A DNA stretch of 64,000 nt, taken from contig NZ_JIAL01000001.1 in assembly GCF_000688455.1 (NCBI RefSeq), positions 1,519,001 through 1,583,000 on the forward strand, read 5' to 3'. The notes beneath the pieces are model-generated. The model was not told the origin of the DNA, did not search any database, and was given only the letters and a program-made list of their open reading frames with translations. Of the stretch, positions 37,080 through 55,677 are shown piece after piece. How positions within the stretch are numbered: the first letter of the stretch is position 1; each line of letters begins with the position of its first letter. The translations under genes were made by a program, and so were the position numbers. The stretch is from Pseudacidobacterium ailaaui. Lineage in GTDB: Bacteria; Acidobacteriota; Terriglobia; Terriglobales; Acidobacteriaceae.

Positions 37080-37276
37080 TTGCCGGTCTGATCGGGGCCA
37101 TTACGGCCCTTCTCCTGCTGTTTATTTTCTGGCGCGGCCGGTCTTCCAATCTGAAGGAGCGCTTTGAACGTCCCAAATTTCAATTCCTGAAGAACCTTGG
37201 GGTCGCCAGGTCTGGTCAGGAAGCACAACAACACAAAACCGAACAGGAGAAAACACATGCAAAACATGAGCCGTAG
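37076..37276 (+). CDS. Small CcoQ-like membrane protein, 66 residues
   Basis: It starts MIAGLIGAITALLLLFIFWR with one membrane helix followed by a basic and then very polar tail (QQHKTEQEKTHAKHEP). The ATG at 37076 overlaps the oxidase TGA as ATGA. Size, topology and place right after the oxidase match the CcoQ/FixQ kind of small subunit, though sequence similarity is too short to prove it. Its last 20 bases overlap the next gene. Confidence 0.6.
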   Translation: MIAGLIGAITALLLLFIFWRGRSSNLKERFERPKFQFLKNLGVARSGQEAQQHKTEQEKTHAKHEP

Positions 37277-37967: not shown

Positions 37968-37991
37968 GGACCAGCAAAGGACGCAAAGACA

Positions 37992-38951: not shown

Positions 38952-38952
38952 G

Positions 38953-39961: not shown

Positions 39962-42900
39962 ATGCAACGCCTTATCCATCAAGGTGCGCGCCTGTGTATG
40001 GCGCATACCGCGCTTCTTCTGTGTGTGCTGTTCCTGCAGTTCTGCACCGTACGGACCCTTCACGCACAGGCAAACGCCGGAATTACCGGCACCGTCACGG
40101 ATTCGACCGGCGCCGTGATTGCGGGTGCCCAGATCACGATTACCAACCAATCCACTGGAGTGCAAAACCACGCTGTGACCAGTAGCTCGGGGACCTATAC
40201 GGTCACGGGCCTGATCCCGGGCGCATATTCGGTTGAGGTGAATGCAGGGGGGTTTAAAACCTTCAGGATCAACAATATCAACGTGGAAGTCAGCACTACG
40301 GCCACCATCAACGCGACGCTGGCCACCGGAGAAACGTCAGAAACGGTGGAAGTCACGGCGAATCCGATTGCCCTGAACACGACCTCGCCCCAGCTTGGAT
40401 CCACGATTGAGCCGACTGTGGTCAAGGCCCTGCCGGTCGAGGTCTCAGGCCGCGGACGTCAGGTAGACCAGCTGCAGTTTCTTGCCCCTGGTGTTACCGG
40501 CAACACCTTCTCGCACCGTGTGAATGGCGGCGTGGATTTCGAGCAGGAGATTGTCTACAACGGTGTTCCTGCGCCCCAGCCGGAGACCGAAGGATATACA
40601 ACCAACTTCAATCCACCGTACGAAATGGTGCAGGAGTTCCGGGTCGAACGGTCCACTTTTTCCGCACAGTTCGGTTTAGGGCAAGGGGCGCTGACCTATC
40701 AGATGGCCTCGGGAACGAACCGGTATCATGGTGATCTGTTTGAGATCAACCGCAACAGCTTGTTTGACTCAGTCGGTTTCTTTAACGAAAAGGCGCAGGG
40801 CGGCAATGGCCAGGTCCCGGTGGACCATGAAAATAACTATGGTTTCACCGTAGGCGGTCCCATCTGGATCCCGAAGGTCTACGACGGCCATAACCGCACG
40901 TTTGGGCATTACAGCCAGGAATGGTACAAGCAGAACAACGAAAACACGGGAATCTCCACCGTTCCCAGCGCGCTTGAAAAGACCGGCGATTTCACGGATT
41001 TTGTAGACGGCGGCACGGGCCAGCAGATTCCGATTTTTGATCCGACGACGGGCAAGCAGTTTATGGGGCTGAAGAACGGAGTTCCAACGCCCAACGTGAT
41101 TCCTTCCAACAGGATCAGCGGCAATTCGCAGTCCTTGCTGCAATACCTGCCTAACCCAGACCGTCCGGGTACGGGAATTGGCGGCCTGGACAGCAACAAA
41201 AGCTATGCCCCGTTCATCAACCCACATATTCAGCATGTTTGGGGATTCACAATCGACCAGGTCCTGACTCCGACGCAGGGACTGCACTACAGTCAATGGC
41301 GGAACAGCTTCAGCAATTACAGCTTTGATTACAGCCCGTTTGTGATTGCTCCGAATCCGCTGAACAGCATGAAGTTTGAGCCAGCACTAGGCAGCGGATT
41401 CCTGCTGACCTACAACAACACGGTCACACCCAATCTCGTCATGACGGCGGGCTTTGGGTGGATTGGCGAGATCAACAACCAGTTCAACATCACCAAGTAC
41501 AGCTTTCCTGCGATTGCCGAGGGGGTGATTCCGCCCAATATCACCTTTGACGGACAGCATGCACCAACGAGCTGGGGTACCAGCGGCGCATGGCTGCAGT
41601 CGATTAACCGCAAGCTGGGACTGGCCCTGGTCAACAACTGGTTGTGGACCAAAGGCCGCAACACATTTAACATCGGCGGCGAATGGCGGCGTTCCTACCA
41701 GGACGACAACGAAGAGCAAACAGCAGGCGGACACTTTGCCTTCAGCCATCTGGAGACGGCCGATCCGAACAACCTGGACACGACGGGCAGCTCGTTTGCC
41801 AGCTACCTGCTGGGTCTGCCGGACTCGGCCAATCGCAGCAACTCGCAAGAGCTGCGTCTGCGCAACATGGACCTGTCGCCCTACATTCAGGACGACATCA
41901 AACTGACTCCAAAGCTGACGTTGAACCTCGGACTGCGTTGGGACATTCAGGTGCCGTTCACCGAAATGCATAACAATGTGGTCTTCTTTGATCCGAACAA
42001 TCCGCGCACCAATCCGGCAGCAGGCGGACTTCCGGGTGCTTTGACAAAATTTGGGAACTGCACCGGGTGCGCCGGCTATGACCGTGCCTATATTCACTGG
42101 GGACATTTCGGGCCGCGGCTAGGCATGGCTTACCAGATCAACGACAAAACCGTGCTGCAGGCAGGCTACAGCGTTGCCTTCCTGAACGGCGGCGCGTATG
42201 AATACGGGACCAGCAAGGTGGCGGTGAACTATGGGAACCTCCTGGTAGGGTCCTTCGCCCAGAGTTCGACCGGGACCAATGTTTCCGCATACGGCAGCTG
42301 GGACACCCGCACGATGCCGAATCCCGGGCCGACGCCTTTCAGCCCCACGCTCGGCATTGGAGGTGTGCAGATTGATGCCTTCAGCTCGACAGACGGCTTT
42401 GCTCCCTACAGCCAGCAGTGGAACGTCAATGTGCAGCGCGAACTGCCTTATGACATCTTTCTGACCGCGGCCTGGGTAGGCAACCGGGAAATCCATTTGC
42501 CCAGCCAGTTGAATTCCATCAACCAGCTGGATCCGAAATACTTTGCTCTGGGTAATGATCTAAACCTGAGTTTCGCCGATGGTTCAGCACAGGCCAAGGG
42601 CTATCAGATGCCTTATCCGAATTTTGCCAATGATTTTGGCTCGGCGGCGACGGTAGCGCAGGCCCTGGTGCCGTATCCACAATATGGATTCATCTTCAAC
42701 AACTTTGAAGGCTATGGCACAGCGTATTACCAGAGCGCGCAGCTCCAGGTGGAAAAGCGGTTCACGCATGGGCTTGCATTCCTGGCTGGATATACGATTG
42801 CGCGTGAATACAACAACACGAGCAGCGGGTTCACCAGCTTTATTTCGAATGCGCTGAACAAATACAACCAGAAACTGGAGTGGGCGCCCACCAGTGGTGC

Positions 42901-43486
42901 GCCTCCGCAGACCCTGAAAGTCAGCGGTACCTATGAGCTGCCGATTGGTCCCGGCAAGCGTTTCTTCAACAACAAGGGAGTGACCGGACAGATCCTGGGT
43001 GGCTGGCAGGTGGGCTGGATCACGGATTATGAGTCAGGCACTCCGTTTGGTGTATACCAGAACCTGTCCTTCCCCTATCCAAACGGGGGTGGGGAACGCC
43101 CGAACAGGAACCCTGCCGTAAAGCTCAGCACGGCTTCCTACAACCGCGAGAGAGACTACTTCCTGGGCAAGATCAGTTCCGCCCAGATCTTCAACCCGAG
43201 CGCCTTTACTGCCGCTCCGCTGTTTACGCTGGGCAACTCCATACGGAACTATAACGAACTCCGCAACCCCGCCTACTATAACGAAGATGCCAACGTCCGG
43301 AAGCACTTTTACTTTGGCGAGCGCTTCCAGGGCATCCTGCAGGTGGACTACTTCAACCTGTTCAACCGCGTGCAATTTAATGGGCCAGACAACAACATCA
43401 GTGATGGCACATTCGGGCTGGCGCAAAATGCGGGCCAGAACAATAGCAACCGGCAAGGACAGGTGATGTTCCGGCTGGAGTTTTAA
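39962..43486 (+). CDS. TonB-dependent receptor, Oar-like, with carboxypeptidase-regulatory domain
   Basis: A 1174-residue outer-membrane protein. A long signal region (about 1-38, ending VRTLHAQANA) is followed by the Ig-like regulatory domain (about 40-120: GITGTVTDSTGAVIAGAQIT ... GTYTVTGLIPGAYSVEV), a plug and a beta-barrel ending in MFRLEF with the terminal Phe. A GGAGGT site lies 6 bases before the ATG. The gene is monocistronic: promoter and double LacI-type operator upstream, and two terminators downstream. LacI-type control of such receptors usually goes with uptake of a sugar or oligosaccharide, so a carbohydrate ligand is inferred. Confidence 0.87.
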   Translation: MQRLIHQGARLCMAHTALLLCVLFLQFCTVRTLHAQANAGITGTVTDSTGAVIAGAQITITNQSTGVQNHAVTSSSGTYTVTGLIPGAYSVEVNAGGFKTFRINNINVEVSTTATINATLATGETSETVEVTANPIALNTTSPQLGSTIEPTVVKALPVEVSGRGRQVDQLQFLAPGVTGNTFSHRVNGGVDFEQEIVYNGVPAPQPETEGYTTNFNPPYEMVQEFRVERSTFSAQFGLGQGALTYQMASGTNRYHGDLFEINRNSLFDSVGFFNEKAQGGNGQVPVDHENNYGFTVGGPIWIPKVYDGHNRTFGHYSQEWYKQNNENTGISTVPSALEKTGDFTDFVDGGTGQQIPIFDPTTGKQFMGLKNGVPTPNVIPSNRISGNSQSLLQYLPNPDRPGTGIGGLDSNKSYAPFINPHIQHVWGFTIDQVLTPTQGLHYSQWRNSFSNYSFDYSPFVIAPNPLNSMKFEPALGSGFLLTYNNTVTPNLVMTAGFGWIGEINNQFNITKYSFPAIAEGVIPPNITFDGQHAPTSWGTSGAWLQSINRKLGLALVNNWLWTKGRNTFNIGGEWRRSYQDDNEEQTAGGHFAFSHLETADPNNLDTTGSSFASYLLGLPDSANRSNSQELRLRNMDLSPYIQDDIKLTPKLTLNLGLRWDIQVPFTEMHNNVVFFDPNNPRTNPAAGGLPGALTKFGNCTGCAGYDRAYIHWGHFGPRLGMAYQINDKTVLQAGYSVAFLNGGAYEYGTSKVAVNYGNLLVGSFAQSSTGTNVSAYGSWDTRTMPNPGPTPFSPTLGIGGVQIDAFSSTDGFAPYSQQWNVNVQRELPYDIFLTAAWVGNREIHLPSQLNSINQLDPKYFALGNDLNLSFADGSAQAKGYQMPYPNFANDFGSAATVAQALVPYPQYGFIFNNFEGYGTAYYQSAQLQVEKRFTHGLAFLAGYTIAREYNNTSSGFTSFISNALNKYNQKLEWAPTSGAPPQTLKVSGTYELPIGPGKRFFNNKGVTGQILGGWQVGWITDYESGTPFGVYQNLSFPYPNGGGERPNRNPAVKLSTASYNRERDYFLGKISSAQIFNPSAFTAAPLFTLGNSIRNYNELRNPAYYNEDANVRKHFYFGERFQGILQVDYFNLFNRVQFNGPDNNISDGTFGLAQNAGQNNSNRQGQVMFRLEF

Positions 43487-43627: not shown

Positions 43628-44797
43628 ATGAATCCCCGGAAATCTGTGGTGCTTCTATTTTTCTGCTGTCTGCTTCTGGCGGCCCGCTTCTGCTGCGCGC
43701 AAACTGCGGAAGAGGAAGTGACGCCGCAGGTGCAATCGCTTTATGAACAGGCCAAAGCAGCGCAGCAGCGTGGAGACAATAGCACGGCGATCCAGAAATA
43801 CCGCGCGATGGTGAAGCTGGCACCACATCTTGCGCCGGCCTACAACAATCTGGGGATGCTGTATTTCAATGAGGGCGATTATCCTCATGCGGTGCAGGCG
43901 CTGGAACAAGGGCTGAGACTCAACCCTGCGATGCCGACGGCCTCGGCGCTGCTGGGGCTGAGCTATGCACAGATGGGTGAAGACTCCAAGGCCGAGCCGC
44001 TGCTGGAAGCGGCAGTCCGCGCCAATCCAAACGACGATACGGCAACCATGGCGCTGGCGCACACGCTGGTCAATCTGAAGCGCCTGGATGATGCTATACC
44101 GTATTTAAGAAGCTATCTTGACCGCCATCCAAAAGACCAGCAGGCTTGGTATCTGCTGGGTAAGACCTATCTTCAGCTTTCAGAAGACGCTCTGGGACGC
44201 ATCAACCAGATTGATCCCGACTCGGCCATGGCCCATATGGTTGCGGGTGAAATTGATGAGAGCATGAAGAACTACGATGGTGCACTTGTGGAATACAAGA
44301 AGGCCATCGACCTTGCTCCAAAACAGCCGGGGATGCATGAGCACATGGGGAATGTCTTTTGGGTGACGGGAAAGTGGGAGTCAGCACAGGCGGAGTTCCG
44401 GGCCGAACTGGCGAACAATCCAGGCAACTGCACCGTGCGCTGGAAGCTGGCCAATGCCATGCTGGAAGCGAATGCTTCCCCGCAGGAGGCCCTGACGGAA
44501 GTCAATCAGGCGATTGAGCGGTGCCCTGGCCTGATGCAGGCGCATGTGGACCGCGCGCGTGCGCTCATCAAGCTGGGCAAGCCAGACGAAGCACTTGCGG
44601 ACCTGCTTCTGGCAGAAAAAGATTCTCCTGACGAGCCTTCCATCCACTTCCTTCTCTCTTCGGTATACAAGGCCGAGGGCAAGACTGCCGAGGCCCTGCA
44701 GGAGATACGTACCTACGGCCGCTTGCAGAGGCAGGCCAGCGAGGCCGTAGCGCAACAGGCAAGCGATGCAATTTCCATCAAAAACAGTGCACATTAG
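43628..44797 (+). CDS. Secreted TPR protein
   Basis: A 389-residue protein with signal peptide (MNPRKSVVLLFFCCLLLAAR, cleavage near CCAQ) and TPR-type helical repeats through nearly the whole chain, for example NSTAIQKYRAMVKLAPHLAP, YPHAVQALEQGLRLNPAMPT and KNYDGALVEYKKAIDLAPKQ. TPRs mediate protein contacts. The ATG at 43628 lies after the terminator; its ribosome site is weak. It is the first gene of a four-gene operon and overlaps the FG-GAP gene by 32 bp, so its partner is probably among the cytochrome and FG-GAP proteins of the same operon. Confidence 0.8.
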   Translation: MNPRKSVVLLFFCCLLLAARFCCAQTAEEEVTPQVQSLYEQAKAAQQRGDNSTAIQKYRAMVKLAPHLAPAYNNLGMLYFNEGDYPHAVQALEQGLRLNPAMPTASALLGLSYAQMGEDSKAEPLLEAAVRANPNDDTATMALAHTLVNLKRLDDAIPYLRSYLDRHPKDQQAWYLLGKTYLQLSEDALGRINQIDPDSAMAHMVAGEIDESMKNYDGALVEYKKAIDLAPKQPGMHEHMGNVFWVTGKWESAQAEFRAELANNPGNCTVRWKLANAMLEANASPQEALTEVNQAIERCPGLMQAHVDRARALIKLGKPDEALADLLLAEKDSPDEPSIHFLLSSVYKAEGKTAEALQEIRTYGRLQRQASEAVAQQASDAISIKNSAH

Positions 44798-46577
44798 GGC
44801 CTTCGCAGCCGTGGCGGGTCTTGGATGCGTCCTGAGTGCTGCTGCACAGATGGGAGGCGTAAGCACAGGAGCTGCTGCTGCTCCGGTTTATGATGCCGAG
44901 CACCGGCCCATTACCGCAGGCGGGTTTGTAGACCACGGTCCGATTGTCTTTAGAGACATCACGAAAGAATCAGGGCTGGCGTCATGGCAGCATGTGGTTG
45001 GCACTCCGGAAAAGAAGTATATTGTCGAGTCGCTCGGCAGTGGTGTGGCGCTGCTCGATTATGACAACGATGGTTGGCTGGACATTTATCTGGTAAACGG
45101 CTCAACTTACGATGCAATGAGCGGAAAGGCGCCCCCGCCCCATGCTGCGCTCTTTCACAACAACCACGACGGAACGTTTACCAACGTTGCTGAGAGGGCC
45201 GGAGTCACGAATGATCGCTGGGGCGTCGGCGTAGCTGTGGGCGACTATGACAATGACGGCTGGCCGGACCTTTACGTCACCAACGTGGGCAAAAACCGTC
45301 TTTACCACAACAACCACGACGGCACATTTACCGACGTTGCAGAAAAGGCCGGAGTGGCCCTCGGTACATGGTCCACCAGCCCTACGTTTGGTGATTATGA
45401 TGGCGACGGGCGGCTCGACCTCTTTGTTCCCGGATATACCAAATACGACTTCAGCAATCCACCCGCACCGGGTGCAACCTCCGTGGTCTCAAACACGTGT
45501 CAGTATCGCGGAGTACCAGTCTTCTGCGGTCCGCGCGGATTGAAGGGCGAGCAAGACCATCTGTTTCATAACAACGGAGATGGTACGTTCACCGACGTGA
45601 GTGTAAAGGCAGGTGTAGCCGATGCACCGGGATATTACGGTCTGGTCTCGCTCTTTGTCGATCTGAATGATGACGGCAGGCCCGATCTCTTAGTGGCCAA
45701 CGACTCTACTCCGAACTATCTGTATCGCAACAAAGGCGACGGCACATTTGAGGACATCAGTTTTGAATCAGGCTACGCTGTGAACAATGATGGCCGGGAA
45801 ACTGCCAGCATGGGCATTGCAGTCGGCGATTCTCTGAATCGCGGACGACTCGACATTCTGAACACGACCTTTTCCGATGACTACAAGGTGCTGTATCGAA
45901 ACAATGGTGATTTTGATTTTACGGATGTCAGCAGTGAGGCGGGCATCGCAAAGGCCACCATACCGTTTCTAAGCTGGGGCGATGGCTTGATTGACTATGA
46001 TAACGACGGATGGAAGGACATCTTTATCGCCAGTGGCCATGTTTATCCGCAGGCCGACCAGAACGACTGGGGTACCAGCGTGGCCGAGCGGCCGTTGCTC
46101 TTCAGGAACCTGGGCAATGGAAAGTTCGAGCTTGTTCCGCCTGTCAAAGGTACAGGACTCGCCGATGTCATTCGCGCCCGGGGCGCCGCTTTCGGGGACC
46201 TCTTCAATGATGGCAAGGTGGATGTTGTCATCAATAATGTAGATGGTCCGCCGACGCTGCTGCGCAATGTAAGCGACGACCACCATCACTGGATAGAATG
46301 CAGGCTTATTGGAGGGCCGAAGGGTCCGCGCGATGCGGTGGGAGCTGTGGTTTACCTTACAGCAGGAAAGATCAGGCAGCGAGGAGATGTTCTGAGCGGA
46401 GGCAGCTTCGCCTCATCGAATGATCCGCGTGTCCACTTTGGGCTTGGCGATGCCGACAAGATTGAGGACTTCGAAGTCCGCTGGCCGGATGGTGTACGGG
46501 AGAAGCTTTCTCCACCGGAGGTAGACCACATTTCTATCATTGAAGAAGGCAAGGGCATTCTGAAGGTGCAGAAGTGA
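44766..46577 (+). CDS. FG-GAP/ASPIC-UnbV (CRTAC1-like) secreted protein, copy 1
   Basis: A 603-residue exported protein. After a signal peptide (ending SAAAQMGG) come repeated FG-GAP/VCBS calcium-binding segments of the form DYDNDGWLDIYLVNG, DYDNDGWPDLYVTN, DYDGDGRLDLFVPG, DLNDDGRPDLLVAND and DYDNDGWKDIFIASGH, which build a seven-bladed integrin-alpha-like propeller. The C-terminal 90 residues, with GGPKGPRDAVGAVVYL and VRWPDGVREKLSP, are the ASPIC/UnbV domain. The D-x-D-x-D loops bind calcium. It overlaps the TPR gene by 32 bp and the multiheme gene by 4 bp. A binding or scaffold role in the periplasm or on the surface is likely; no enzyme motif is visible. Confidence 0.85.
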   Translation: MQFPSKTVHIRAFAAVAGLGCVLSAAAQMGGVSTGAAAAPVYDAEHRPITAGGFVDHGPIVFRDITKESGLASWQHVVGTPEKKYIVESLGSGVALLDYDNDGWLDIYLVNGSTYDAMSGKAPPPHAALFHNNHDGTFTNVAERAGVTNDRWGVGVAVGDYDNDGWPDLYVTNVGKNRLYHNNHDGTFTDVAEKAGVALGTWSTSPTFGDYDGDGRLDLFVPGYTKYDFSNPPAPGATSVVSNTCQYRGVPVFCGPRGLKGEQDHLFHNNGDGTFTDVSVKAGVADAPGYYGLVSLFVDLNDDGRPDLLVANDSTPNYLYRNKGDGTFEDISFESGYAVNNDGRETASMGIAVGDSLNRGRLDILNTTFSDDYKVLYRNNGDFDFTDVSSEAGIAKATIPFLSWGDGLIDYDNDGWKDIFIASGHVYPQADQNDWGTSVAERPLLFRNLGNGKFELVPPVKGTGLADVIRARGAAFGDLFNDGKVDVVINNVDGPPTLLRNVSDDHHHWIECRLIGGPKGPRDAVGAVVYLTAGKIRQRGDVLSGGSFASSNDPRVHFGLGDADKIEDFEVRWPDGVREKLSPPEVDHISIIEEGKGILKVQK

Positions 46578-48202
46578 GGCAGGACCGAATAGCACTCTGG
46601 CTTCTTCTCGTTCTTGCCGCAGGGGCATTCGCGCAGGAAACAGCCACGCCCGTCCGCGAAGCTGATGCAGTTTGCGCGCGGTGTCATCGGGACATTTTCA
46701 ATGCATACCTGCAAACACCCATGGCCAATGCAAGCGGCGTTGCGATGGACAAGGCCATTCCCGGCGTGCTTGACCATAAGGCCTCGGGCACCGTTTACCG
46801 AGTGTTTGTTCAGGACGGAAACCTCATCCTGCAAATCCCGAAGACCGACAGTGAGTTCCGGCTGGAGTATTTCCTCGGCTCCGGACATTTGGGAACCACG
46901 TATCTTTACTCCATCCACGGCCACTTATTTGAATCACCGATCGCCTGGTACGCTGCTTCGCATTCGTATGACATGAAACCTGGTTTGGAAGGCGTAACTG
47001 CAATGCCACCCGCACTTCCCATGCAGGCAAGCTGCCTGCGTTGCCACATGAGCGCCGTGCAGAAGAGCGATGCAGGGACGATCAACTACTATGCCGGGCC
47101 GGCATTTGAGCATACGGGCATCACCTGTGAGGGGTGCCATGGAGACACCCAACAGCATGTGAGCAGCAACGGCAAGGGCCCGGTCGTCAATCCGGCAAAG
47201 CTGGATGCGGCGCGGCGCGATTCAGTCTGCATCAGTTGTCATCTGGAAGGGGACGTTTCTGTCGAAAAAGCAGGGCGTTCTTCCCTCGACTATAAACCTG
47301 GAGACAACATCGCTGATTTTCTGACTTACTTTGTCTATCAGGGGAAGAACCTGACCGAGCGCGGCGTCAGCGAGGTGGAGCAACTCGGCATGAGCCGTTG
47401 CAAGCGCGCCAGCGGAGACAGGATGTCCTGCACCAGTTGCCACGATCCGCATGTTTCGCCTGCGCCTGAGGAAAAAGCAGCCTTTTACCGGAAGAAATGT
47501 CTGGCTTGCCATACGGATGCGGCCTTCGCATCTTCCCATCACCCTGAGGAGCCTGACTGCACCCAATGTCATATGCCGCGCAGCAGCGCAGAAAACATTC
47601 CCCATGTTGCATGGACGGACCATCGCATCCGGAAAATTCCGGACAAAGTGGTCATGGCTGACCTGGACAATGGGGAGGAGCTTGTTCCCGTCTTCTCTCC
47701 GGAGGCAAACCAGCGCGACCTTGCGATGGCGTATTTTCAGGCTGCCATGGAGGGCAATGCAGCGCTGCATACGACTGCCCTGAATCTGCTTGAAAAGATC
47801 AGAGCTGGACTTTCAGACGACCTCGAAGCGCTTGCCGCCCTTGCGCTCGAAAGCGAGCGTCAGGGTGACTACAAACAGGCCGCGGATCTTTTCCGGGAGA
47901 TACTCAAACGCGACCCGCAAAATCTTACCGCGCTTTCGAACCTCGGTACGCTTGAGGCCAGAGACGGCCATCTGCCAAGCGCCCTTATCTTCCTGAAACA
48001 GGCCTTCAGCCGGAACGAGAACATTGTGGGGCTGGCAAAAAATCTGGCGCAGGTGCAATGCATGAAGGGAGACGCAGCCTCTGCCAAGGCCACTCTGCAG
48101 GCGACCCTGCAATACAATCCAGGCCTTCCGGATGTGCAGCAGATGATCAAGCATCTTCAGTCCTGCGGCGACGCAAGGTCTGAAAAGAAACAGACGCAAT
48201 GA
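46574..48202 (+). CDS. Seven-heme c-type cytochrome with C-terminal TPR region
   Basis: A 542-residue exported protein with a GTG start overlapping the FG-GAP stop (GTGA) and a signal peptide (about 1-20). Seven C-x-x-C-H heme sites occur at C34, C154, C185, C219, C286, C309 and C329. The doubled-CxxCH spacing in the second half resembles c554/nitrite-reductase-like multiheme folds. From about residue 380 the chain turns into TPR helices (DYKQAADLFREILKRDPQNL and similar). Periplasmic electron storage or transfer is expected; the TPR part should dock it to partners such as the other TPR proteins of the operon. Confidence 0.85.
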   Translation: MRQDRIALWLLLVLAAGAFAQETATPVREADAVCARCHRDIFNAYLQTPMANASGVAMDKAIPGVLDHKASGTVYRVFVQDGNLILQIPKTDSEFRLEYFLGSGHLGTTYLYSIHGHLFESPIAWYAASHSYDMKPGLEGVTAMPPALPMQASCLRCHMSAVQKSDAGTINYYAGPAFEHTGITCEGCHGDTQQHVSSNGKGPVVNPAKLDAARRDSVCISCHLEGDVSVEKAGRSSLDYKPGDNIADFLTYFVYQGKNLTERGVSEVEQLGMSRCKRASGDRMSCTSCHDPHVSPAPEEKAAFYRKKCLACHTDAAFASSHHPEEPDCTQCHMPRSSAENIPHVAWTDHRIRKIPDKVVMADLDNGEELVPVFSPEANQRDLAMAYFQAAMEGNAALHTTALNLLEKIRAGLSDDLEALAALALESERQGDYKQAADLFREILKRDPQNLTALSNLGTLEARDGHLPSALIFLKQAFSRNENIVGLAKNLAQVQCMKGDAASAKATLQATLQYNPGLPDVQQMIKHLQSCGDARSEKKQTQ

Positions 48203-49125
48203 TAAGGCTGCTCCAATGCGGTGCTGTTCTGCTCTTCTGTGCACGGCTGGCGGCTGCCCAGTCTGACCCCCTGGCGAGCGCACACTCGCTTTTGGACCAG
48301 AAACAATTCATGCAGGCAGAAGCGCTCCTGCGCGGCTATCTCGCGGCACATCCCGCATCGGCGGATGCGCACTTTCTTCTTGGATACACCCTCTTCCGTG
48401 AAGGGCACCCCAGGGAATCCTTGGCTGAATTTACAGAAGGGGCAAAATACGAGCGCCCGAAAGCGGCGGACCTGAAGGTTGTGGCGGCCGACTATGTTCT
48501 TCTTGGCAGCTTTACCGATGCTGACAAGTGGCTGACGCTCGTCACAAAAGAAACACCAGAGGACGCAGATGCCTGGTATCTGCTGGGCCGCACCAAATAT
48601 AACGAGAACCGCTTTGAGGAAGCCATTGAGAGCTTTCAGAGGACGCTGGCGCTTCGTCCGCATGACATCAAAGCAGAGAACAATATGGGACTCTCCTATC
48701 AGGGGCTGGACCAGACAGATGCGGCGAGAAAAGCATACGAAACGGCCATTGCCTGGCAGAAGGATGCATCCGCGAAAGATGCGCAGCCCTTTCTGAACCT
48801 GGGCAGCCTGTTGATGGAGCAAGACCAGCCTTCGCAGGCGTTGCCTTATCTGGAAGAGGCCGCTGTGCTGGCCCCGCACAACCCAAAGGTGCTGGAACAG
48901 CTTGGCCGGGCCTATGAACTGCTGGCCATGCATGGAAAGGCGGCAGAGGTCCTGGAACGGGCGGTGAGTCTTGCGCCCAATGCTTCTGCTCTGCATTACA
49001 GGCTGGGCCAGGTTTATCGCCATATGGGCAAGACGCAGCAGGCAGAGCAGCAGTTTGCCATCTGTGCCAAGCTGAACAGCACTCACTCTTCCGTGGAAAC
49101 GCCCAATCCGGCGGAGCAGAAGTAG
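48199..49125 (+). CDS. Secreted TPR protein, last gene of module 1
   Basis: A 308-residue protein with a short signal (MIRLLQCGAVLLFCARLAAA, cleavage near AQS) and about seven TPR units, such as HPRESLAEFTEGAKYERPKA, NRFEEAIESFQRTLALRPHD and GKAAEVLERAVSLAPNASAL. Its ATG overlaps the cytochrome stop as ATGA, and a strong terminator follows 49 bp after its own stop. It is therefore made together with the cytochrome and FG-GAP protein. Confidence 0.8.
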   Translation: MIRLLQCGAVLLFCARLAAAQSDPLASAHSLLDQKQFMQAEALLRGYLAAHPASADAHFLLGYTLFREGHPRESLAEFTEGAKYERPKAADLKVVAADYVLLGSFTDADKWLTLVTKETPEDADAWYLLGRTKYNENRFEEAIESFQRTLALRPHDIKAENNMGLSYQGLDQTDAARKAYETAIAWQKDASAKDAQPFLNLGSLLMEQDQPSQALPYLEEAAVLAPHNPKVLEQLGRAYELLAMHGKAAEVLERAVSLAPNASALHYRLGQVYRHMGKTQQAEQQFAICAKLNSTHSSVETPNPAEQK

Positions 49126-49174
49126 GGCTGCGGCGCTGCGGGAAGTTTTGGCCTGGGGACGACGAAGGACTGCG

Positions 49175-49199
49175 AAAGCCGCAGGGCGGAGCTTTTTTT
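49175..49199 (+). terminator. Intrinsic terminator between module 1 and module 2
   Basis: AAAGCCGC (49175-49182) pairs with GCGG-A-GCTTT with one bulged A, loop AGG, and the T run reaches 49199. It divides the two FG-GAP/cytochrome modules into separate transcription units. Confidence 0.75.
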
Positions 49200-49241
49200 C
49201 AACCATCCGGTGGAAGACAACGATCTGCGGCCGTAGCGATA

Positions 49242-51218
49242 ATGAGCACCCGTAGCCAGTTCCTTTTTGCAGGTCATTCATTCATGTTTTCTTGTCCGTC
49301 TTTACGTCATCGGTGGAGGAGGTTCTATCTTGCAGTCTGCACGCTCGGTGTTTTTCTGCCTGTATTGTGGGCCTATGCCCAGCAGGCGGCATCACCTCCC
49401 ATGTATGGTGGCAGTAAGGCGGCAGCCCCTATGGGCGGTTCCTCCACGGCCGGTGTATTTGCACCGGTCCTTGATTCTGAAAAGCGGCCCATCACCGCTG
49501 GTGGATTCGTAAAGAATGGGCCGGTCATTTTCGAGGACATCTCAGATAAGGCCGGGCTGACGGTGTGGCGCCATAAAATGGGCACCCCGCAGAAGACCTT
49601 CATTCTTGAGACCACCGGCTCCGGGGCCTGCCTGCTGGATTACGACCATGATGGATGGATCGACATTTATCTGGTAAACGGGTCCACCTATGAGGCTCTG
49701 GATGGCAATACGGAGCCGCCTCATGCAGCGCTCTTTCACAACAATCATGACGGGACGTTCACCGATGTTTCTGCAAAGGCAGGCGTGACCAACGACCGCT
49801 GGGGGTACGGTTGCGCCGTAGGCGATTATGACAACGATGGCTGGCCAGATCTTTATGTGACCAACTTTGGAAAGAACCGCCTCTTTCACAACAACCACGA
49901 CGGCACCTTTACTGACGTTGCCGAAAAGGCAGGCGTCACACTCGGTAACTGGTCCACGGGAGCAAGTTTTGGCGATTTTGACGGCGATGGACGGCTGGAC
50001 CTCTTTGTGCCTGGATATATCCATTACGACATCCAGCATCCACCGGTCCCAGGTTCGGCCGTGGTCGGTTTTGGATATTGCCAGTATCGGGGTGTGCCTG
50101 TGATGTGCGGACCGCGAGGCCTTGAAGGAGAGCCAGACCATTTATTTCATAACAACGGGGATGGCACATTTACGGATGTAAGTGAGAAGGCTGGTGTGGG
50201 CGATAAGAACCGCTACTACGGTTTCTCTTCGACTTTTGTGGATGTGAACAACGACGGCAAGGTAGACCTAGTGGTTGCCAACGATTCCACGCCGAACTAC
50301 CTCTACATCAACCGGGGCGATGGCACATTTGAAGATGCGAGTTTTTATTCCGGTTTTGCGCTAAACCAGGATGCTCGTGAGACCGCATCCATGGGACTTG
50401 GAGTCGGAGACTATCTCAACAACGGGCGAGTGGACCTATACACCACGACCTTTTCTGACGATTACAAGACACTGTTCCGCAATGAAGGCGATGGGAACTT
50501 TTCCGAAATTACTCCGCAGATGGGGATCGCAGAAATCACGTTCCCTTTTCTGAGCTGGGCCACCGAGTTCATTGACTATGACAACGACGGTTGGAAAGAC
50601 ATTATGACGATCAGCGGCCATGTCTATCCACAGGCCGATGAAAACAACTGGGGCACAACCTTTGCCGAGCGTCCGCTGCTGTTCCACAACGTTGACCATG
50701 GCAGGAAGTTTGATGTGGTACCGGCAGTAGAAGGGACCGGGCTGGCGGATGTGATTCCGGGGCGCGGGGCCGCCTTCGGGGACCTCTTTAACGACGGGCG
50801 GATAGATGTGGTTGTGAATTGCATCGACCACACGCCCGTGCTGCTGCGCAATGTGAACGCCGATACGAACCACTGGGTCGCTCTGGTCCTCGAAGGTGGG
50901 CCGAAGGGGCCTCGCGACGCAATTGGCGCCACGGTATATCTGCGTGCGGGAGGCATCCGGCAGCGCGGGGACGTGATGAGCGGCGGCAGCTACGAGTCCT
51001 CCAATGATCAGAGGCTGCATTTCGGACTGGGACAGGCGACGACGGTCGAAGACGTGGAAATCCACTGGCCGGACGGGACTGTGGAACACCTTTCTGTGCC
51101 GAGTGTGGATCGTTTTTTCATGGTCGAAGAAGGAAAAGGGATCGTGCCCAGCGTTTATGACAGCGTTGTGGGGAAAGGCGTCTCCGGCACTGCTCCGGAG
51201 CGGGCGGCGAAACGGTGA
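49242..51218 (+). CDS. FG-GAP/ASPIC-UnbV (CRTAC1-like) secreted protein, copy 2
   Basis: A 658-residue paralogue of the FG-GAP protein at 44766, alike along its whole length: both carry the phrases RPITAGGF, PPHAALFHNNHDGTFT, AGVTNDRWG and DGRLDLFVPGY. Seven D-x-D-x-D-G blade motifs and a C-terminal ASPIC/UnbV domain (GGPKGPRDAIGATVYL, IHWPDGTVEHLSV) are present. It has a longer basic N-terminus before the signal helix (FYLAVCTLGVFLPVLWAYAQ); a start at the ATG of 49284 would give a more normal signal, and neither site has a strong ribosome signal. It is the first gene of module 2 and is followed 30 bp later by a five-heme cytochrome. Confidence 0.85.
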   Translation: MSTRSQFLFAGHSFMFSCPSLRHRWRRFYLAVCTLGVFLPVLWAYAQQAASPPMYGGSKAAAPMGGSSTAGVFAPVLDSEKRPITAGGFVKNGPVIFEDISDKAGLTVWRHKMGTPQKTFILETTGSGACLLDYDHDGWIDIYLVNGSTYEALDGNTEPPHAALFHNNHDGTFTDVSAKAGVTNDRWGYGCAVGDYDNDGWPDLYVTNFGKNRLFHNNHDGTFTDVAEKAGVTLGNWSTGASFGDFDGDGRLDLFVPGYIHYDIQHPPVPGSAVVGFGYCQYRGVPVMCGPRGLEGEPDHLFHNNGDGTFTDVSEKAGVGDKNRYYGFSSTFVDVNNDGKVDLVVANDSTPNYLYINRGDGTFEDASFYSGFALNQDARETASMGLGVGDYLNNGRVDLYTTTFSDDYKTLFRNEGDGNFSEITPQMGIAEITFPFLSWATEFIDYDNDGWKDIMTISGHVYPQADENNWGTTFAERPLLFHNVDHGRKFDVVPAVEGTGLADVIPGRGAAFGDLFNDGRIDVVVNCIDHTPVLLRNVNADTNHWVALVLEGGPKGPRDAIGATVYLRAGGIRQRGDVMSGGSYESSNDQRLHFGLGQATTVEDVEIHWPDGTVEHLSVPSVDRFFMVEEGKGIVPSVYDSVVGKGVSGTAPERAAKR

Positions 51219-51248
51219 GGCGTGGAAGGAGCAGAAACAGATACTGCC

Positions 51249-53645
51249 ATGAAAAAGATCAGAGGCGTGTTTTCCATCACCGCAGCCTTTTTGCTGGCTG
51301 GTCATCTCGTTTCATCGCCGGCCGCCAGCCCGCAACAAGACCAGGCCAGCATCCAGAAAGCATATTCCAATCGTATCAGTAAAAGTTACAATTTTCGCTT
51401 TGGCAAAGACAAGCCCTTCGTGCCCGGGAACGCCGAAAGCCAACGCGGAGGATTTATCCAGCCAGGGGCCTTTCCTACGGCGGAGTATTGTGCGCATTGC
51501 CACCAGGAAGCGTACCAGCAATGGCGTCAGGCGCTGCACTCCAATTCCTTCCGCACTCCGTTTTATCGCACCAGCGTCAATCTTCTGATCCGCACGAAGG
51601 GCATTGAATTTTCCCGCCATTGCGACAGCTGCCATAATCCCATTGCGGTACTGTCTGGCGCGCTAACCGAAGATTCGCATGTGGACCGCAAGTTTGATGC
51701 GGATGGACTGACCTGCATGACGTGCCATTCGATCCAGGGGTTGCAATCCACCAATGGCAATGGAGGCTTTGTCATGGGCATTCCCGCAGTCATGGTGGAT
51801 GAGAAGGGAAACCGTGTTCCCGGCGAGGTGCCTTATGAGGAAATTTTGAAGCATACTGACCGACATGCCGAAGCAGTGATGAAAGACTTCTACCGCACGC
51901 CGGAGTTCTGTGCAGCGTGCCACAAGGCGAACCTGCCGGAAACGCTCAACGACTACAAGTTTGTGCGTGCATTTACAACCTATGACGAATGGCAGAACTC
52001 AAAGTTTTCGCAAAGGAATCCGCTGACTTTTTATCCAGGCGATTTTACGACCTGTCAGGGATGCCACATGAAACGCGAGCCCAATAAGCTTCCGGACTAC
52101 GGTGCGAAGCACGGAACGTTTGCCTCGCACCGATGGCTGGCAGGGAATACTGCGGTGCCTTTCTATTACGGCTTTGATGAGCAGCTGGAAAAAACGATCG
52201 AATTTCTGCGCTCGGGGAACTATCTTAACGTAGATATTTTTGGTATCCGGGTGTCAGGCAAGGAGAAACTGATTGCTCCGCTGGGCTCGGTTCCCTTCCA
52301 CATAAACCCCGGCGATGTTCTGGAGACCTTTGTTGTGATCCAGAACCGGGGAATCGGCCACTCACTGCTTCCTGAAGTACGCGATCTCTATGAAGCCTGG
52401 GTGGAATTTACGGTGAGGGACGCCAGAGGAAAAGACGTCTACCACAGCGGCTTTCTGAAGCCGGATGGCTCCCTGGATGAGCATGCCCATAGCTTTACCA
52501 ACCGGCCCGTGACGGCAAAGGGTGAGTTTGTGGACAACCACAAGGTATGGCTCATCCGTTCGGTGGCGTTTGATAATACCGTGCCTGCCGGAGGGGCTTC
52601 TCTGGTACGCTACCAATTTCGCCTTCCCGCTGACATACGAGGAAGCATCACCTTAACAGCCAGAGTGAACTACCGCCACCTTCGTCAGAGTTACCTGAAC
52701 AACGTTTTCGGCAAAGAGCATCCGGCATATCCGGTGATCGAGCTGGCCAGCCGAACACGGACATTGCGGATTGGCAGCAACCTGCCGGAAAAGCCGGACC
52801 CCAGGGACAATCCGGACTGGATGCGCTGGAACAATCTAGGGATTTCCTATCTGGACCAGCTACCGGGAGTGGGTTTTCCGCCAGTCCGCACCGGCCATTA
52901 TGCCGACGCCATCCAGGCCTTTGCTGAGGTAGTGAAGCTACGTCCTGACTATGCTGACGGATACACGAATATTGCGCTGACCGATATTGAGTGGGAGAAA
53001 TACGACTCGGCGAGGAATGCGCTGGACCGGGCACTCTCGCTGAATCCGGACAGTGCCCGCGCACTGTACTACATGGCACTGGTGGAGCGGCGCACCGGCC
53101 ATCCGGATGCAGAGATGGCTGACTTGAAGAAGGTGGTAGAACAGTATCCACAGTCGCGCGATGCCCGGCGTGAGCTGGGAATCACTTATTATCAGCAGCA
53201 CAACTATACTGCCACCATAGAGCAGTTTGAAAAGCTGCAGGAGATTGACCCCGACGATCTTGCTGCCCATTACAACTTGTCCATTTTGTATCGGCGAATG
53301 GGCTGGAAGGACAAGGCGGCGCAGCAGCAGGCGATGTTTGTGACCAGGAAGTTTGATCCGAACTCGCCTACGTATTCTCTTACCTTCCTCCGCAATCACC
53401 CTGAGATCTCCAGCGAGAGCATTCCGTGGCACATGCACACAAGCCAGCCTCATGAAGGGGGGATATGTCCCCCCTGGCACCGATGGGGGGACAGGGTTAC
53501 GGGAATCCAGGGGGCGGGAGTTATCAATGAGAAGTCCCCTGTTGCTGGTGCTCTTCTTTGCATGGTTCCCCGGTCTGTGCCGCGCGACAAGTGGGTGCCC
53601 ATGGATCAACCAGGCGACGGCCCTGGGCGCATTGGGGACCCGTGA
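51249..53645 (+). CDS. Five-heme c-type cytochrome (c554-like) with C-terminal TPR region
   Basis: With the ATG at 51249 the protein has 798 residues and a signal peptide (MKKIRGVFSITAAFLLAGHL); a GTG at 51222 is possible. Five C-x-x-C-H sites are at C81, C125, C156, C221 and C269, spaced as in c554-type cytochromes. A beta-rich middle part (about 300-530) is followed by TPR repeats (about 550-740). The last 60 residues after HPEISSESIPWHMHT look unlike the rest, contain runs of Pro/Gly/Arg and overlap the next gene by 119 bp. A G6/C6 hairpin lies exactly where the odd tail begins, so the true end may be earlier or a frameshift may be present. Confidence 0.82.
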   Translation: MKKIRGVFSITAAFLLAGHLVSSPAASPQQDQASIQKAYSNRISKSYNFRFGKDKPFVPGNAESQRGGFIQPGAFPTAEYCAHCHQEAYQQWRQALHSNSFRTPFYRTSVNLLIRTKGIEFSRHCDSCHNPIAVLSGALTEDSHVDRKFDADGLTCMTCHSIQGLQSTNGNGGFVMGIPAVMVDEKGNRVPGEVPYEEILKHTDRHAEAVMKDFYRTPEFCAACHKANLPETLNDYKFVRAFTTYDEWQNSKFSQRNPLTFYPGDFTTCQGCHMKREPNKLPDYGAKHGTFASHRWLAGNTAVPFYYGFDEQLEKTIEFLRSGNYLNVDIFGIRVSGKEKLIAPLGSVPFHINPGDVLETFVVIQNRGIGHSLLPEVRDLYEAWVEFTVRDARGKDVYHSGFLKPDGSLDEHAHSFTNRPVTAKGEFVDNHKVWLIRSVAFDNTVPAGGASLVRYQFRLPADIRGSITLTARVNYRHLRQSYLNNVFGKEHPAYPVIELASRTRTLRIGSNLPEKPDPRDNPDWMRWNNLGISYLDQLPGVGFPPVRTGHYADAIQAFAEVVKLRPDYADGYTNIALTDIEWEKYDSARNALDRALSLNPDSARALYYMALVERRTGHPDAEMADLKKVVEQYPQSRDARRELGITYYQQHNYTATIEQFEKLQEIDPDDLAAHYNLSILYRRMGWKDKAAQQQAMFVTRKFDPNSPTYSLTFLRNHPEISSESIPWHMHTSQPHEGGICPPWHRWGDRVTGIQGAGVINEKSPVAGALLCMVPRSVPRDKWVPMDQPGDGPGRIGDP
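53457..53474 (+). repeat. Perfect G6/C6 hairpin inside the cytochrome 3' end
   Basis: GGGGGGA (53457-53463), loop TATG, TCCCCCC (53468-53474). A second GGGGGG at 53491 could pair with the C run instead. Such homopolymer runs are prone to slippage or sequencing error. Confidence 0.7.
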
Positions 53646-54012
53646 GGATTTGCCTGGGGCAAGCGCAGAGACGGGTCCTGCATCCTGCTATTTCGCTTAT
53701 CACGATGGGAAGACTACCCGCGAGCTTCGTATCACGGTAGAAGATGCCGCAGTCCCGGAGCGGGCCTGGATGGCGGCCATGAAAACCCAGTGTGGCGCTC
53801 GAAGGATGGTTCTGCGCGCCATTGGCAATGAAGCGATCATGTGCTGGACCGGGCGATACGGGACAGGAGCGAGGGTTCTGGGGCGTGTTCGGGACAAGAT
53901 CTTCACGATTGATATCAAGACCAGTGAAGAGAAGGCCTCGGAGATGAGCGAAGAAATCCTCGCTGAGAAGGCACGGCTTGTTGCCGAACAGGTATCCGGG
54001 AACCTGTTTTGA
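53527..54012 (+). CDS. Hypothetical secreted protein
   Basis: A 161-residue protein with a signal peptide (MRSPLLLVLFFAWFPGLCRA). The mature part has four Cys, two at C24 and C54 (SGCPWINQATALGALG, ASCYFAYHDG) and two later (KTQCGARR, AIMCWTG), suited to disulfides in the periplasm, and a C-terminal helix rich in Glu and Lys. The ATG at 53527 has GGGAG 6 bases upstream and lies inside the 3' end of the cytochrome frame. Codon use and the signal make it a real gene. I recognise no family; it is probably cotranscribed with the cytochrome. Confidence 0.65.
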   Translation: MRSPLLLVLFFAWFPGLCRATSGCPWINQATALGALGTREDLPGASAETGPASCYFAYHDGKTTRELRITVEDAAVPERAWMAAMKTQCGARRMVLRAIGNEAIMCWTGRYGTGARVLGRVRDKIFTIDIKTSEEKASEMSEEILAEKARLVAEQVSGNLF

Positions 54013-54053: not shown

Positions 54054-54143
54054 TGGCGGAGGGAGAGGGATTCGAACCCCCGTTACCCTTTCGGGTAAAG
54101 CGGTTTTCAAGACCGCCTGTTTCAACCACTCACACATCCCTCC
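54054..54143 (-). tRNA. tRNA-Ser(UGA)
   Basis: The 90-nt minus-strand sequence folds as a class II tRNA: acceptor GGAGGGA pairs with TCCCTCC before G and encoded CCA, the anticodon loop is CTTGAAA with anticodon TGA, the long variable arm is TACCC-GAAA-GGGTA, and the T arm has GGTTCGAATCC. All point to serine, codon UCA. Confidence 0.95.
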
Positions 54144-54534: not shown

Positions 54535-55677
54535 ATGCAGACTGAGATGGACAATCCACAAAATTCAATGGAAGAGGAAGACGCCATGAACGCAGACGCT
54601 GAATTGGCACGCGACATTGCACGCCTGTATTCGTGGGCGAATGTAGAAGACGCTGCATATCACAGTTTTACCCGCAGGCGAAAGCCGCACTCCAATCGCA
54701 GCGGACCGTCCGTTGAGGAGCATGCCTCGGAGAAGATGGAACCGAAGGTGAGAATGGATTCTCACCACCTTGGGGAAGAGCCGGTGGGGACGCAGACAGC
54801 AGAAAAAGCGGTCCTTACGTCCGCAGCGCCGGTGGTTGAACCGATGCCGACCCCGGCGGTCCCTCCTCCGGCCTTCACCCACCTTCCTTCCCATGAGCAG
54901 GCATCGGTACCCGTAACCATGCCCTGGCAGGAAACAGCTTCCACCCCGGTATCGGTGGCCGTGTACTCGCTGGCGGGCGGAGTGGGAAAGACCACCCTTT
55001 GCGCAAACCTGGGCAGGATCCTTTGCTCGCTCGGCGAGCAGGTGCTGCTGGTGGATGCATCCGGATGCGGCCTTTTGCCTTTTTACTTTGGCGCCAGTGA
55101 TTTCCGTCCGGGGCTGCGCACCTTCAAGGACCCGCAGCAGAGGTATGCTCCGGTCCGGGTGCTGGGGGCAGAGCAGATCACGCCGGAATGGTTTGAGTCC
55201 CAGGTGAAGCCGGCAATGCAGAATACGCAGCGGGTCATCTTTGATCTTGGACCGGCATCGGTCGAGGTCCTGCCGCAGGTCCTGGAAATGAGCTCTGTGG
55301 TGCTGATTCCGGTGCTTTCGGACTTAAATTCGATTCTGACGATTTCACGCATTGAGGCGGGGCTGAAGAAGATGCGCGCAGCGTCGCATACCATCCCTGC
55401 GCCCTATTATGTGTTCAATGAATTTGACGAGCAGAACCCGATTGACCAGAAGGCGCGCGCCCTGGTGAAGCGCCAGGTCGGCGAGCGGCTCCTGCCGTGG
55501 TCCATCCGCTACAGTACGGTCGTGGCCAACGCCATCGCCGACCGGATGACCGTCGCCGACCACGCGCCAGATTCGGCCGTGACCCACGACTTCATGGAGG
55601 TGGCCTCCTGGTTGCGGGTAACGGCCCCGGTGGCTGAACTTTCCGCCGCGGCCCACAGGCGGTGGAGTGAGCAATGA
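54535..55677 (+). CDS. bcsQ: Cellulose biosynthesis ParA/MinD-like ATPase, BcsQ
   Basis: A 380-residue protein. Residues 20-50 (ELARDIARLYSWANVEDAAY) resemble the short BcsR/BcsP protein, here fused to the N-terminus. A Pro-rich linker leads to a MinD/ParA-like ATPase from about residue 137, with the deviant Walker A AGGVGKTTL at 147-155; the usual leading Lys is Ala, so dimer-sensing chemistry may differ from MinD. VIFDLGPASVEVL supplies the switch region. BcsQ helps place or assemble the cellulose machine at the membrane. It is the first gene of the operon and overlaps bcsAB by ATGA. The exact start is uncertain because in-frame ATGs follow at 54547 and 54586. Confidence 0.78.
   Translation: MQTEMDNPQNSMEEEDAMNADAELARDIARLYSWANVEDAAYHSFTRRRKPHSNRSGPSVEEHASEKMEPKVRMDSHHLGEEPVGTQTAEKAVLTSAAPVVEPMPTPAVPPPAFTHLPSHEQASVPVTMPWQETASTPVSVAVYSLAGGVGKTTLCANLGRILCSLGEQVLLVDASGCGLLPFYFGASDFRPGLRTFKDPQQRYAPVRVLGAEQITPEWFESQVKPAMQNTQRVIFDLGPASVEVLPQVLEMSSVVLIPVLSDLNSILTISRIEAGLKKMRAASHTIPAPYYVFNEFDEQNPIDQKARALVKRQVGERLLPWSIRYSTVVANAIADRMTVADHAPDSAVTHDFMEVASWLRVTAPVAELSAAAHRRWSEQ

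What the first reader, a model, noticed from the sequence alone, without database searches (positions are those of the whole stretch)
43628..54012. Duplicated FG-GAP/ASPIC plus multiheme cytochrome-TPR module
The pair FG-GAP/ASPIC protein then multiheme cytochrome with TPR tail occurs twice in tandem (44766-48202 and 49242-53645), separated by a terminator and with extra TPR proteins in the first copy. The FG-GAP proteins are close paralogues but the cytochromes differ (7 against 5 hemes), so the copies have diverged in redox part while keeping the binding part. All products are exported. A calcium-binding propeller, TPR scaffolds and multiheme wires suggest a periplasmic or surface electron-transfer assembly of unknown purpose.
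Basis: partly seen in the sequence, partly recalled or inferred. Interest (0 to 1): 0.78.

Follow-up and report, generated by a model that had tools for sequence, protein, structure and literature searches.

The report
Pentaheme cytochrome paired with CRTAC1 propeller
Two neighbouring sets of secreted proteins in an acidobacterium each pair a propeller-shaped protein, related to an animal cartilage protein, with an unrelated multi-heme electron carrier, and one of these pairings recurs across much of the phylum, which points to a respiratory protein complex whose substrate is still unknown.

Summary
The genes are real: two FG-GAP/ASPIC (CRTAC1-type) proteins, 69% identical, each followed by a probably exported cytochrome with a TPR tail (7 and 5 CXXCH), plus two further TPR proteins. 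It is not a duplicated pair. The cytochromes are unrelated: MHC7 is nearest OcwA/MtrA, while MHC5 has the pentaheme-c552 (PHC) fold. Each CRTAC1 groups with its own module's CRTAC1s from other genera. No terminator is supported between the modules.

The strong result is conserved pairing. A CRTAC1 gene lies within 500 bp of MHC5 in 79 of the 80 closest relatives, 10 of 20 loci from a family-level search and 26 of 38 hand-picked phylum-wide loci (13 of 19 families). In 22 of 23 long relatives the cytochrome carries an N-terminal membrane domain with two conserved histidines, like a heme-b, quinone-linked domain. Some relatives without CRTAC1 lie among carbohydrate genes (no control run).

Best reading: a periplasmic, respiratory-chain-linked electron-transfer complex of unknown direction and substrate; sugar or glycan chemistry is my lead. 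A surface location is unsupported. My paper searches found no report of this pairing; the nearest is CRTAC1 genes in hydrazine-synthase-like clusters.

The parts
39962..43486 (+). Module 1: outer-membrane barrel protein (OMP_b-brl_4 with CarboxypepD_reg), TonB-receptor-like
   Evidence: Pfam; close homologue in L101, L102, L103 and L105 beside the module-1 genes found there (1639-1831 bits)
43628..44797 (+). Module 1: TPR1, TPR protein (open frame runs from 43535; start at 43628 chosen)
   Evidence: Pfam; homologue in L101, L102, L103, L105
44766..46577 (+). Module 1: CRT1, FG-GAP/ASPIC (CRTAC1-type) propeller protein
   Evidence: Pfam; groups with CRTs of MHC7 modules in three other genera, support 100
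46574..48202 (+). Module 1: MHC7, seven-heme cytochrome with TPR tail
   Evidence: 7 CXXCH; Pfam; profile match to 6i5b E 2.6e-14 and 6r2q E 6.6e-10
48199..49125 (+). Module 1: TPR2, TPR protein
   Evidence: Pfam; homologue after MHC7 in L101 and L103
49242..51218 (+). Module 2: CRT2, FG-GAP/ASPIC (CRTAC1-type) propeller protein
   Evidence: Pfam; model matches murine CRTAC1, Z 38.6; groups with CRTs upstream of MHC5, support 99
51222..53645 (+). Module 2: MHC5, pentaheme cytochrome of c552/PHC fold with beta domain and TPR tail
   Evidence: 5 CXXCH; model matches 5ze8, Z 15.2, 341 of 385 aligned
53527..54012 (+). Module 2: DUFx, small gene of unknown family that recurs with CRT and MHC5
   Evidence: homologue within 3 kb of MHC5 in 53 of 80 loci; no Pfam match; start read

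Best explanation
The stretch holds two separate modules that happen to adjoin. Module 1 is barrel-TPR1-CRT1-MHC7-TPR2. Module 2 is CRT2-MHC5-DUFx. Module 2 is the local form of an Acidobacteriota-wide pair: a TPR-tailed pentaheme cytochrome of the c552/PHC fold and a CRTAC1-type calcium-loop propeller. I propose that the propeller docks on the cytochrome, perhaps on its TPR tail, in the periplasm and holds or presents a ligand, while the heme chain carries electrons between that site and the respiratory chain. In the long relatives outside the window's class the link would be an N-terminal, heme-b-like membrane domain that meets the quinone pool. In the soluble forms, such as the window's, it would be a small cytochrome c or a CuA-type cupredoxin, as found beside some copies. 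Shown: gene content, conserved adjacency, folds, separate descent of the modules. Inferred: physical complex, heme b, quinone link, direction of electron flow, carbohydrate-related substrate.
For: CRT within 500 bp of MHC5 in 79 of 80 closest relatives and 10 of 20 family-search loci, and in 26 of 38 hand-picked phylum-wide loci, against about 1% by chance from at most 18 ASPIC domains per genome (gene number assumed). The partner lineage changed (type B CRTs 43-45% identical to CRT2) while the cytochromes stayed close (60-71% to MHC5) and adjacency was kept. Folds. Two intramembrane His columns in 22 of 23 long relatives. TPR-CRT fusions in the own genome and in L258. Monoheme c or cupredoxin beside some copies. 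Independent report of CRTAC1 genes between hydrazine-synthase-like subunit genes (PMC12758564, section 7).
Against: 12 of 38 phylum-wide and 10 of 20 family-level loci lack an adjacent CRT (two of the 20 and one of the 38 at contig ends), among them the same-genus genome's MHC5 (L089). Most CRTs in the own genome are not next to a multiheme gene. The window's MHC5 has no membrane domain. MHC7-CRT adjacency is seen in only 6 of 20 loci. No interface was modelled, and no electron donor or acceptor is known.
Confidence: 0.52

Rival explanations
1. Extracellular electron transfer: the cytochromes form a conduit to the cell surface, with the barrel as channel and the propellers as surface binders of minerals or polymers.
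For: MHC7's nearest solved relatives are EET cytochromes (6i5b, 6r2q; their names are partly recalled), and the PHC family includes ExtKL, proposed to act in EET (PMC11976967 passages). A barrel gene belongs to module 1 in four other loci.
Against: The barrel is of the TonB-receptor-like OMP_b-brl_4 kind, and no barrel is regularly beside MHC5. The long relatives carry an inner-membrane domain. A decaheme MtrA/DmsE-like gene lies elsewhere in the genome.
Confidence: 0.12
2. CRTAC1 and TPR proteins are assembly or export factors for the multiheme cytochromes and do not take part in electron transfer.
For: TPR proteins are common assembly factors (established knowledge). CRT genes recur with unrelated cytochromes (PMC12758564).
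Against: Five of 20 family-level MHC5 loci have no CRT in reach of the fetched stretch, and most CRTs of the own genome lie away from multiheme genes.
Confidence: 0.13
3. The genes are only co-regulated parts of a polymer-use locus; propeller and cytochrome act separately.
For: PHCs without CRT lie among GH, LacI, PfkB and TonB genes in several loci, and a GH5-like gene adjoins CRTs in two places.
Against: The direct CRT-cytochrome adjacency is far tighter and wider than any other neighbour seen; beyond a TPR family (52 loci) the next best are few (7-11 loci, spurious antisense frames aside).
Confidence: 0.17
4. A two-gene module was duplicated in tandem and its redox part diverged.
For: CRT1 and CRT2 are 69% identical and the two pairs adjoin.
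Against: The cytochromes align only in short pieces and have different nearest structures. Each CRT is closer to the same module's CRT in other genera, 77% and 84%. No other fetched locus L081-L200 carries both modules side by side.
Confidence: 0.03

Closest known systems
Pentaheme cytochrome (PHC) family: Thermochromatium tepidum c552 (5ze8), Geobacter ExtKL and Gsu2801, cable-bacteria sPHC/lPHC (as grouped in PMC11976967, passages)
   Same: Five hemes and the c552 fold with its beta domain
   Different: TPR tail, CRTAC1 partner gene, far below the ExtKL family cut-off; long relatives have an N-terminal membrane domain
CRTAC1 (cartilage acidic protein 1, 9etn) and the ASPIC/UnbV family
   Same: FG-GAP_3 repeats plus UnbV_ASPIC domain, same fold over 456 residues
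   Different: Bacterial, gene-linked to multiheme cytochromes; 20% identity to the animal protein
OcwA (6i5b) and MtrA (6r2q) type cytochromes (for MHC7; names partly recalled)
   Same: Sequence-profile similarity over part of the heme domain
   Different: Seven CXXCH, TPR tail, CRTAC1 neighbour
Hydrazine-synthase-like clusters with a CRTAC1 gene in non-anammox bacteria (PMC12758564, section 7 read)
   Same: A CRTAC1-family gene sits among cytochrome genes of the periplasm
   Different: Different heme proteins; no HZS-like gene was recognised in this cluster, though none was searched for by profile
CbcL-type fused cytochrome b / multiheme c proteins of Geobacter (recalled, no call)
   Same: Membrane domain with conserved His fused to a periplasmic multiheme part, as in the long relatives
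   Different: Five hemes of PHC fold, TPR tail and CRTAC1 partner; the window's own MHC5 lacks the membrane domain

Membership tests
Pentaheme cytochrome (PHC/c552) family (MHC5) | Five CXXCH heme motifs | tested here: met
Pentaheme cytochrome (PHC/c552) family (MHC5) | Fold of the c552 heme and beta domains | tested here: met
   5ze8: Z 15.2, rmsd 3.8, 341 of 385 aligned; sequence E 1.8e-5. Predicted without heme.
Pentaheme cytochrome (PHC/c552) family (MHC5) | Heme packing and ligands as in c552 | not testable with these tools
   no heme in the model; only His conservation
ExtKL (NF040886) | Score over the curated cut-off (250 bits) | tested here: not met
   25.1 bits, E 5.9e-6
CRTAC1/ASPIC family (CRT1, CRT2) | FG-GAP repeats and UnbV_ASPIC domain over Pfam cut-offs | tested here: met
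CRTAC1/ASPIC family (CRT1, CRT2) | Fold of solved CRTAC1 | tested here: met
   CRT2 only: Z 38.6, rmsd 2.4, 456 aligned
OcwA-type terminal reductase (MHC7) | Nine hemes (recalled for OcwA) | tested here: not met
   seven CXXCH
OcwA-type terminal reductase (MHC7) | Sequence relationship | tested here: inconclusive
   partial profile match E 2.6e-14; MHC7 was not folded
MtrCAB-type EET conduit (whole cluster) | Decaheme MtrA and MtrB-type porin in the cluster | tested here: not met
   no decaheme among the cluster cytochromes; the barrel is OMP_b-brl_4
Quinone-linked fused cytochrome b/c (relatives of MHC5) | Membrane domain with a His pair fit to bind heme b | tested here: inconclusive
   two intramembrane His columns in 22 of 23 long relatives; absent in the window's MHC5; no heme evidence; no Pfam family matched
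Hydrazine-synthase-like cluster | HZS alpha and beta-gamma homologues beside the CRTAC1 gene | not tested
   no HZS profile was searched; none was named in the Pfam scans of cluster genes

The most novel reading that the evidence does not exclude
Acidobacteriota possess a phylum-wide respiratory complex not described before: a TPR-tailed pentaheme cytochrome, in many lineages fused to a quinone-reactive heme-b membrane domain, that works with a lectin-like CRTAC1 propeller to oxidise or reduce a glycan-derived substrate in the periplasm. CRTAC1-type propellers would then be general partners of periplasmic multiheme cytochromes (PHC, MHC7, hydrazine-synthase-like).
Probability: 0.25. Interest if true: 0.82.

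Novelty: new variant of a known kind. Interest (0 to 1): 0.6.

Why it matters
ASPIC-domain (CRTAC1-type) genes occur in 26 of 41 related genomes searched, up to 18 domains in one, and my paper searches turned up no assigned bacterial function. A conserved partner with a readable cofactor gives a handle: the pair can be co-expressed, heme-stained and tested for complex formation. If the membrane-domain forms are quinone-linked, a widespread soil phylum would have an uncharacterised branch of its respiratory chain, possibly tied to polymer breakdown.

Tried and rejected
Tandem duplication: rejected. Terminator between the copies: not supported. Repeated partner swapping of MHC5: in the 99-row tree starred branches force at least 6 changes for type A and 3 for type B, but in a 39-row subset (19 A, 20 B) the AU test does not reject type A as one clade (p 0.287), so I claim only that the partner was replaced at least once. 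Both trees are 'quick' trees with SH-aLRT support only, and the CRT tree carries long-branch warnings. Upstream cbb3/thiosulfate-like genes as part of the module: the module-1 loci L101-L103 show none of them. Catalytic role from heme ligands: conserved His hint at one heme per cytochrome without a His partner, but in the wider set of 23 MHC7-like sequences only H195, H293, H344 and H350 stay, so this is open. Lectin role from structure: Foldseek lists fungal lectins after CRTAC1, but VIA-align puts LGI1 and WD40-type propellers next, so the likeness is that of a common fold. In the VIA rows for MHC5 most hits are TPR proteins, so other cytochromes missing there means nothing. No carbohydrate-gene control was run. 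No paper on the pairing was found in searches (open-licence PMC only). What I saw of papers: PMC12758564, passages and section 7; PMC3174227 and PMC11976967, passages; PMC13188914, one passage; PMC6703420 and all others, listing or start of abstract.
Full report
What is there. The window is G000:C1:1519001-1583000 of a one-contig genome of 3,686,523 bases; named relatives of MHC5 are mostly Acidobacteriaceae and other Acidobacteriota, with a few records titled as proteobacterial bins. On the + strand lie an outer-membrane barrel (39962-43486), TPR1 (43628-44797), CRT1 (44766-46577), MHC7 (46574-48202), TPR2 (48199-49125), CRT2 (49242-51218), MHC5 (51222-53645) and a small gene DUFx (about 53527-54012), then a tRNA-Ser on the other strand (54054-54143). 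CRT1 and CRT2 hold FG-GAP_3 repeats and the UnbV_ASPIC domain; MHC7 has seven and MHC5 five CXXCH. TPR1/CRT1, CRT1/MHC7 and MHC7/TPR2 overlap; CRT2 and MHC5 are 3 bases apart (coordinates).

Not a duplication. CRT1 and CRT2 are 69% identical, but MHC7 and MHC5 align only in short pieces, best E 0.001. A profile of MHC7's heme part finds 6i5b (E 2.6e-14), 6r2q (6.6e-10) and 6qvm (1.7e-6). That 6i5b is OcwA rests on recall and on the terms of PMC6703420 in a search listing; MtrA for 6r2q and OmhA for 6qvm are recalled. MHC5 finds the pentaheme c552 5ze8 (E 1.8e-5 alone, 5.5e-6 as a profile). A tree of 107 CRT rows puts CRT1 with the CRTs of MHC7 modules in three other genera (4 rows, support 100) and CRT2 in a set of 42 rows, 41 of them upstream partners of MHC5 (support 99) (quick tree, with long-branch warnings for other rows). 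So each CRT goes with its own module, and the two CRTs parted before these genera did. In L081-L200 no locus but the window shows MHC5 and an MHC7 over the score threshold together, though several loci are cut by contig ends. G039 and G040, for instance, hold both cytochromes on different contigs.

Module 1 elsewhere. Of 20 MHC7-like loci, L101 and L103 show barrel, TPR1, CRT1, MHC7 and TPR2 in one run. L102 has barrel, TPR1, CRT1 and a convergent MHC7. L105 has barrel, TPR1 and MHC7 without CRT. L104 has MHC7 alone. A CRT lies within 500 bp of MHC7 in 6 of 20 (L101, L102, L103, L107, L113, L116; read).

Module 2 elsewhere. A scan of one genome per species gave 361 relatives of MHC5, of which the best 80 were kept. 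A CRT lies within 500 bp on the same strand in 79 of 80 (37 upstream, 42 downstream); the exception, L159, has MHC5 near a contig end; DUFx lies within 3 kb in 53 of 80 (distances are between stop-to-stop frames, so a little short). These are the closest relatives and many are kin. In a search of 120 related genomes 17 had MHC5 at E 1e-60. Of 20 loci fetched, 10 have an adjacent CRT (9 on the same strand), two are cut at contig ends, three have a CRT 1.2-3.8 kb away and five have none, among them the same-genus genome (L089). With a profile of the heme and beta domains, 90 of 297 Acidobacteriota genomes (56 of 167 genera) match at E 1e-20. From 36 of these 90 genomes I chose 38 loci by hand: 26 of 38 have a CRT within 500 bp; L242, L243 (1.2 kb), L245, L246, L248, L249 (contig end), L254 (1.6 kb), L255, L266, L275, L278 and L279 do not. 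By the family codes, 13 of 19 families have at least one adjacent pair (my count). ASPIC domains number 240 in 41 genomes, with 15 of 41 having none and the most being 18; for an assumed 3,500 genes that gives about 1% for chance adjacency.

Partner replacement. CRTs upstream of MHC5 (type A) and downstream (type B) form two far-apart groups. The window's MHC5 is 60-71% identical to MHC5s of type B loci, whereas CRT2 is 43-45% identical to type B CRTs. The partner lineage and position thus changed while the adjacency was kept. In the MHC5 tree the types interleave, but a test on 39 rows does not reject a single type A clade (AU p 0.287).

Structures. The CRT2 model (pLDDT 82.0, pTM 0.85) matches murine CRTAC1 (Z 38.6, rmsd 2.4, 456 aligned). 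Foldseek's next rows are fungal GlcNAc lectins and rhamnogalacturonan lyases, whereas VIA-align's are LGI1 and WD40 propellers, so no function follows. The MHC5 model (pLDDT 79.8, pTM 0.80) matches 5ze8 over residues 72-506 (Z 15.2, rmsd 3.8, 341 of 385), and is Foldseek's first row (E 1.1e-10); the C-terminal part is TPR. [quoted passage not shown] In 100 MHC5-type sequences the non-motif His of the heme domain are H106 (99), H133 (95), H211 (87), H215 (100) and H303 (100); H380, H423 and H440 of the beta domain are invariant too. In 15 close MHC7s six further His are invariant for seven hemes; in 23 sequences only four stay conserved. One heme without a His partner in each is possible but not shown.

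Compartment and electron link. Of 23 long PHC relatives (over 820 residues, from the 38 loci), 22 have an N-terminal membrane domain with two conserved His columns; L250 lacks it (hydrophobic segments). Counting five segments, both His lie near the periplasmic end of helices 2 and 4 (my reading), as a bis-His heme b would need. No Pfam family names this domain. Among 14 CRTs checked in 12 of these loci, L253, L257, L268, L269, L276 and L277 have an anchor-like hydrophobic stretch behind a charged start, so both partners could sit on the periplasmic face of the inner membrane. The window's MHC5 lacks the domain. A monoheme cytochrome c abuts the PHC in L093 and L266, and a CuA-like cupredoxin gene lies near 7 loci.

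Substrate lead. I looked at neighbours of 11 PHC loci without adjacent CRT. L266: TonB-like barrel, TPR, a GH35/42-like enzyme, PHC, monoheme c, GH43, and a LacI regulator 4.5 kb off; L278 has the same order by its N-termini. L093: LacI, GH2, PfkB, PHC, monoheme c. L242: a GH13 enzyme next to PHC. L089: LacI regulator. L279: GntR/sugar-binding regulator and TonB receptor. L094 and L096 have GH20 and GH27 only 5-7 kb away. L091, L245 and L246 show no carbohydrate gene among the few neighbours scanned. A GH5-like gene adjoins CRTs in L090 and at 882577-883716 of the own genome. No control was run in these enzyme-rich genomes, so this is a lead and not a result.

Verdict. The families are known one by one. 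The TPR-tailed PHC with a CRTAC1 partner is not described in the papers my searches reached; the nearest report is of CRTAC1 genes in hydrazine-synthase-like clusters (PMC12758564, section 7).

Noticed in passing
window 34440-39738 (+): A fused cbb3 oxidase (CcoN-O-P in one 879-aa protein), a protein weakly like a thiosulfate dehydrogenase family (E 4.9e-29 but under its cut-off), a substrate-binding protein and a SoxA/TsdA-like diheme cytochrome lie just upstream.
   Followed up: partly
window 53483-53645: MHC5 runs on past the point where most aligned homologues end and overlaps the start of DUFx by about 120 bases in another frame.
   Followed up: no
L210 (own genome 381381-386795): A decaheme MtrA/DmsE-like cytochrome and a NapC/NirT-like membrane cytochrome: a more conventional electron conduit elsewhere in this genome.
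   Followed up: no
L202 and L203 (own genome 1591029-1606545): Four CRT-type genes, two of them fused behind TPR domains (1160 and 1181 aa); in L258-L260 and L270 a similar long CRT protein follows PHC and CRT.
   Followed up: partly
L209 (own genome 3452203-3462158): A second seven-heme cytochrome distantly like MHC7 (34% identity) with a TPR gene, between two outer-membrane barrel genes.
   Followed up: no
window 54535-61192 (+): A cellulose synthesis operon (BcsQ-like, a 1462-aa protein joining glycosyltransferase, PilZ and BcsB, then GH8) follows after the tRNA-Ser.
   Followed up: no
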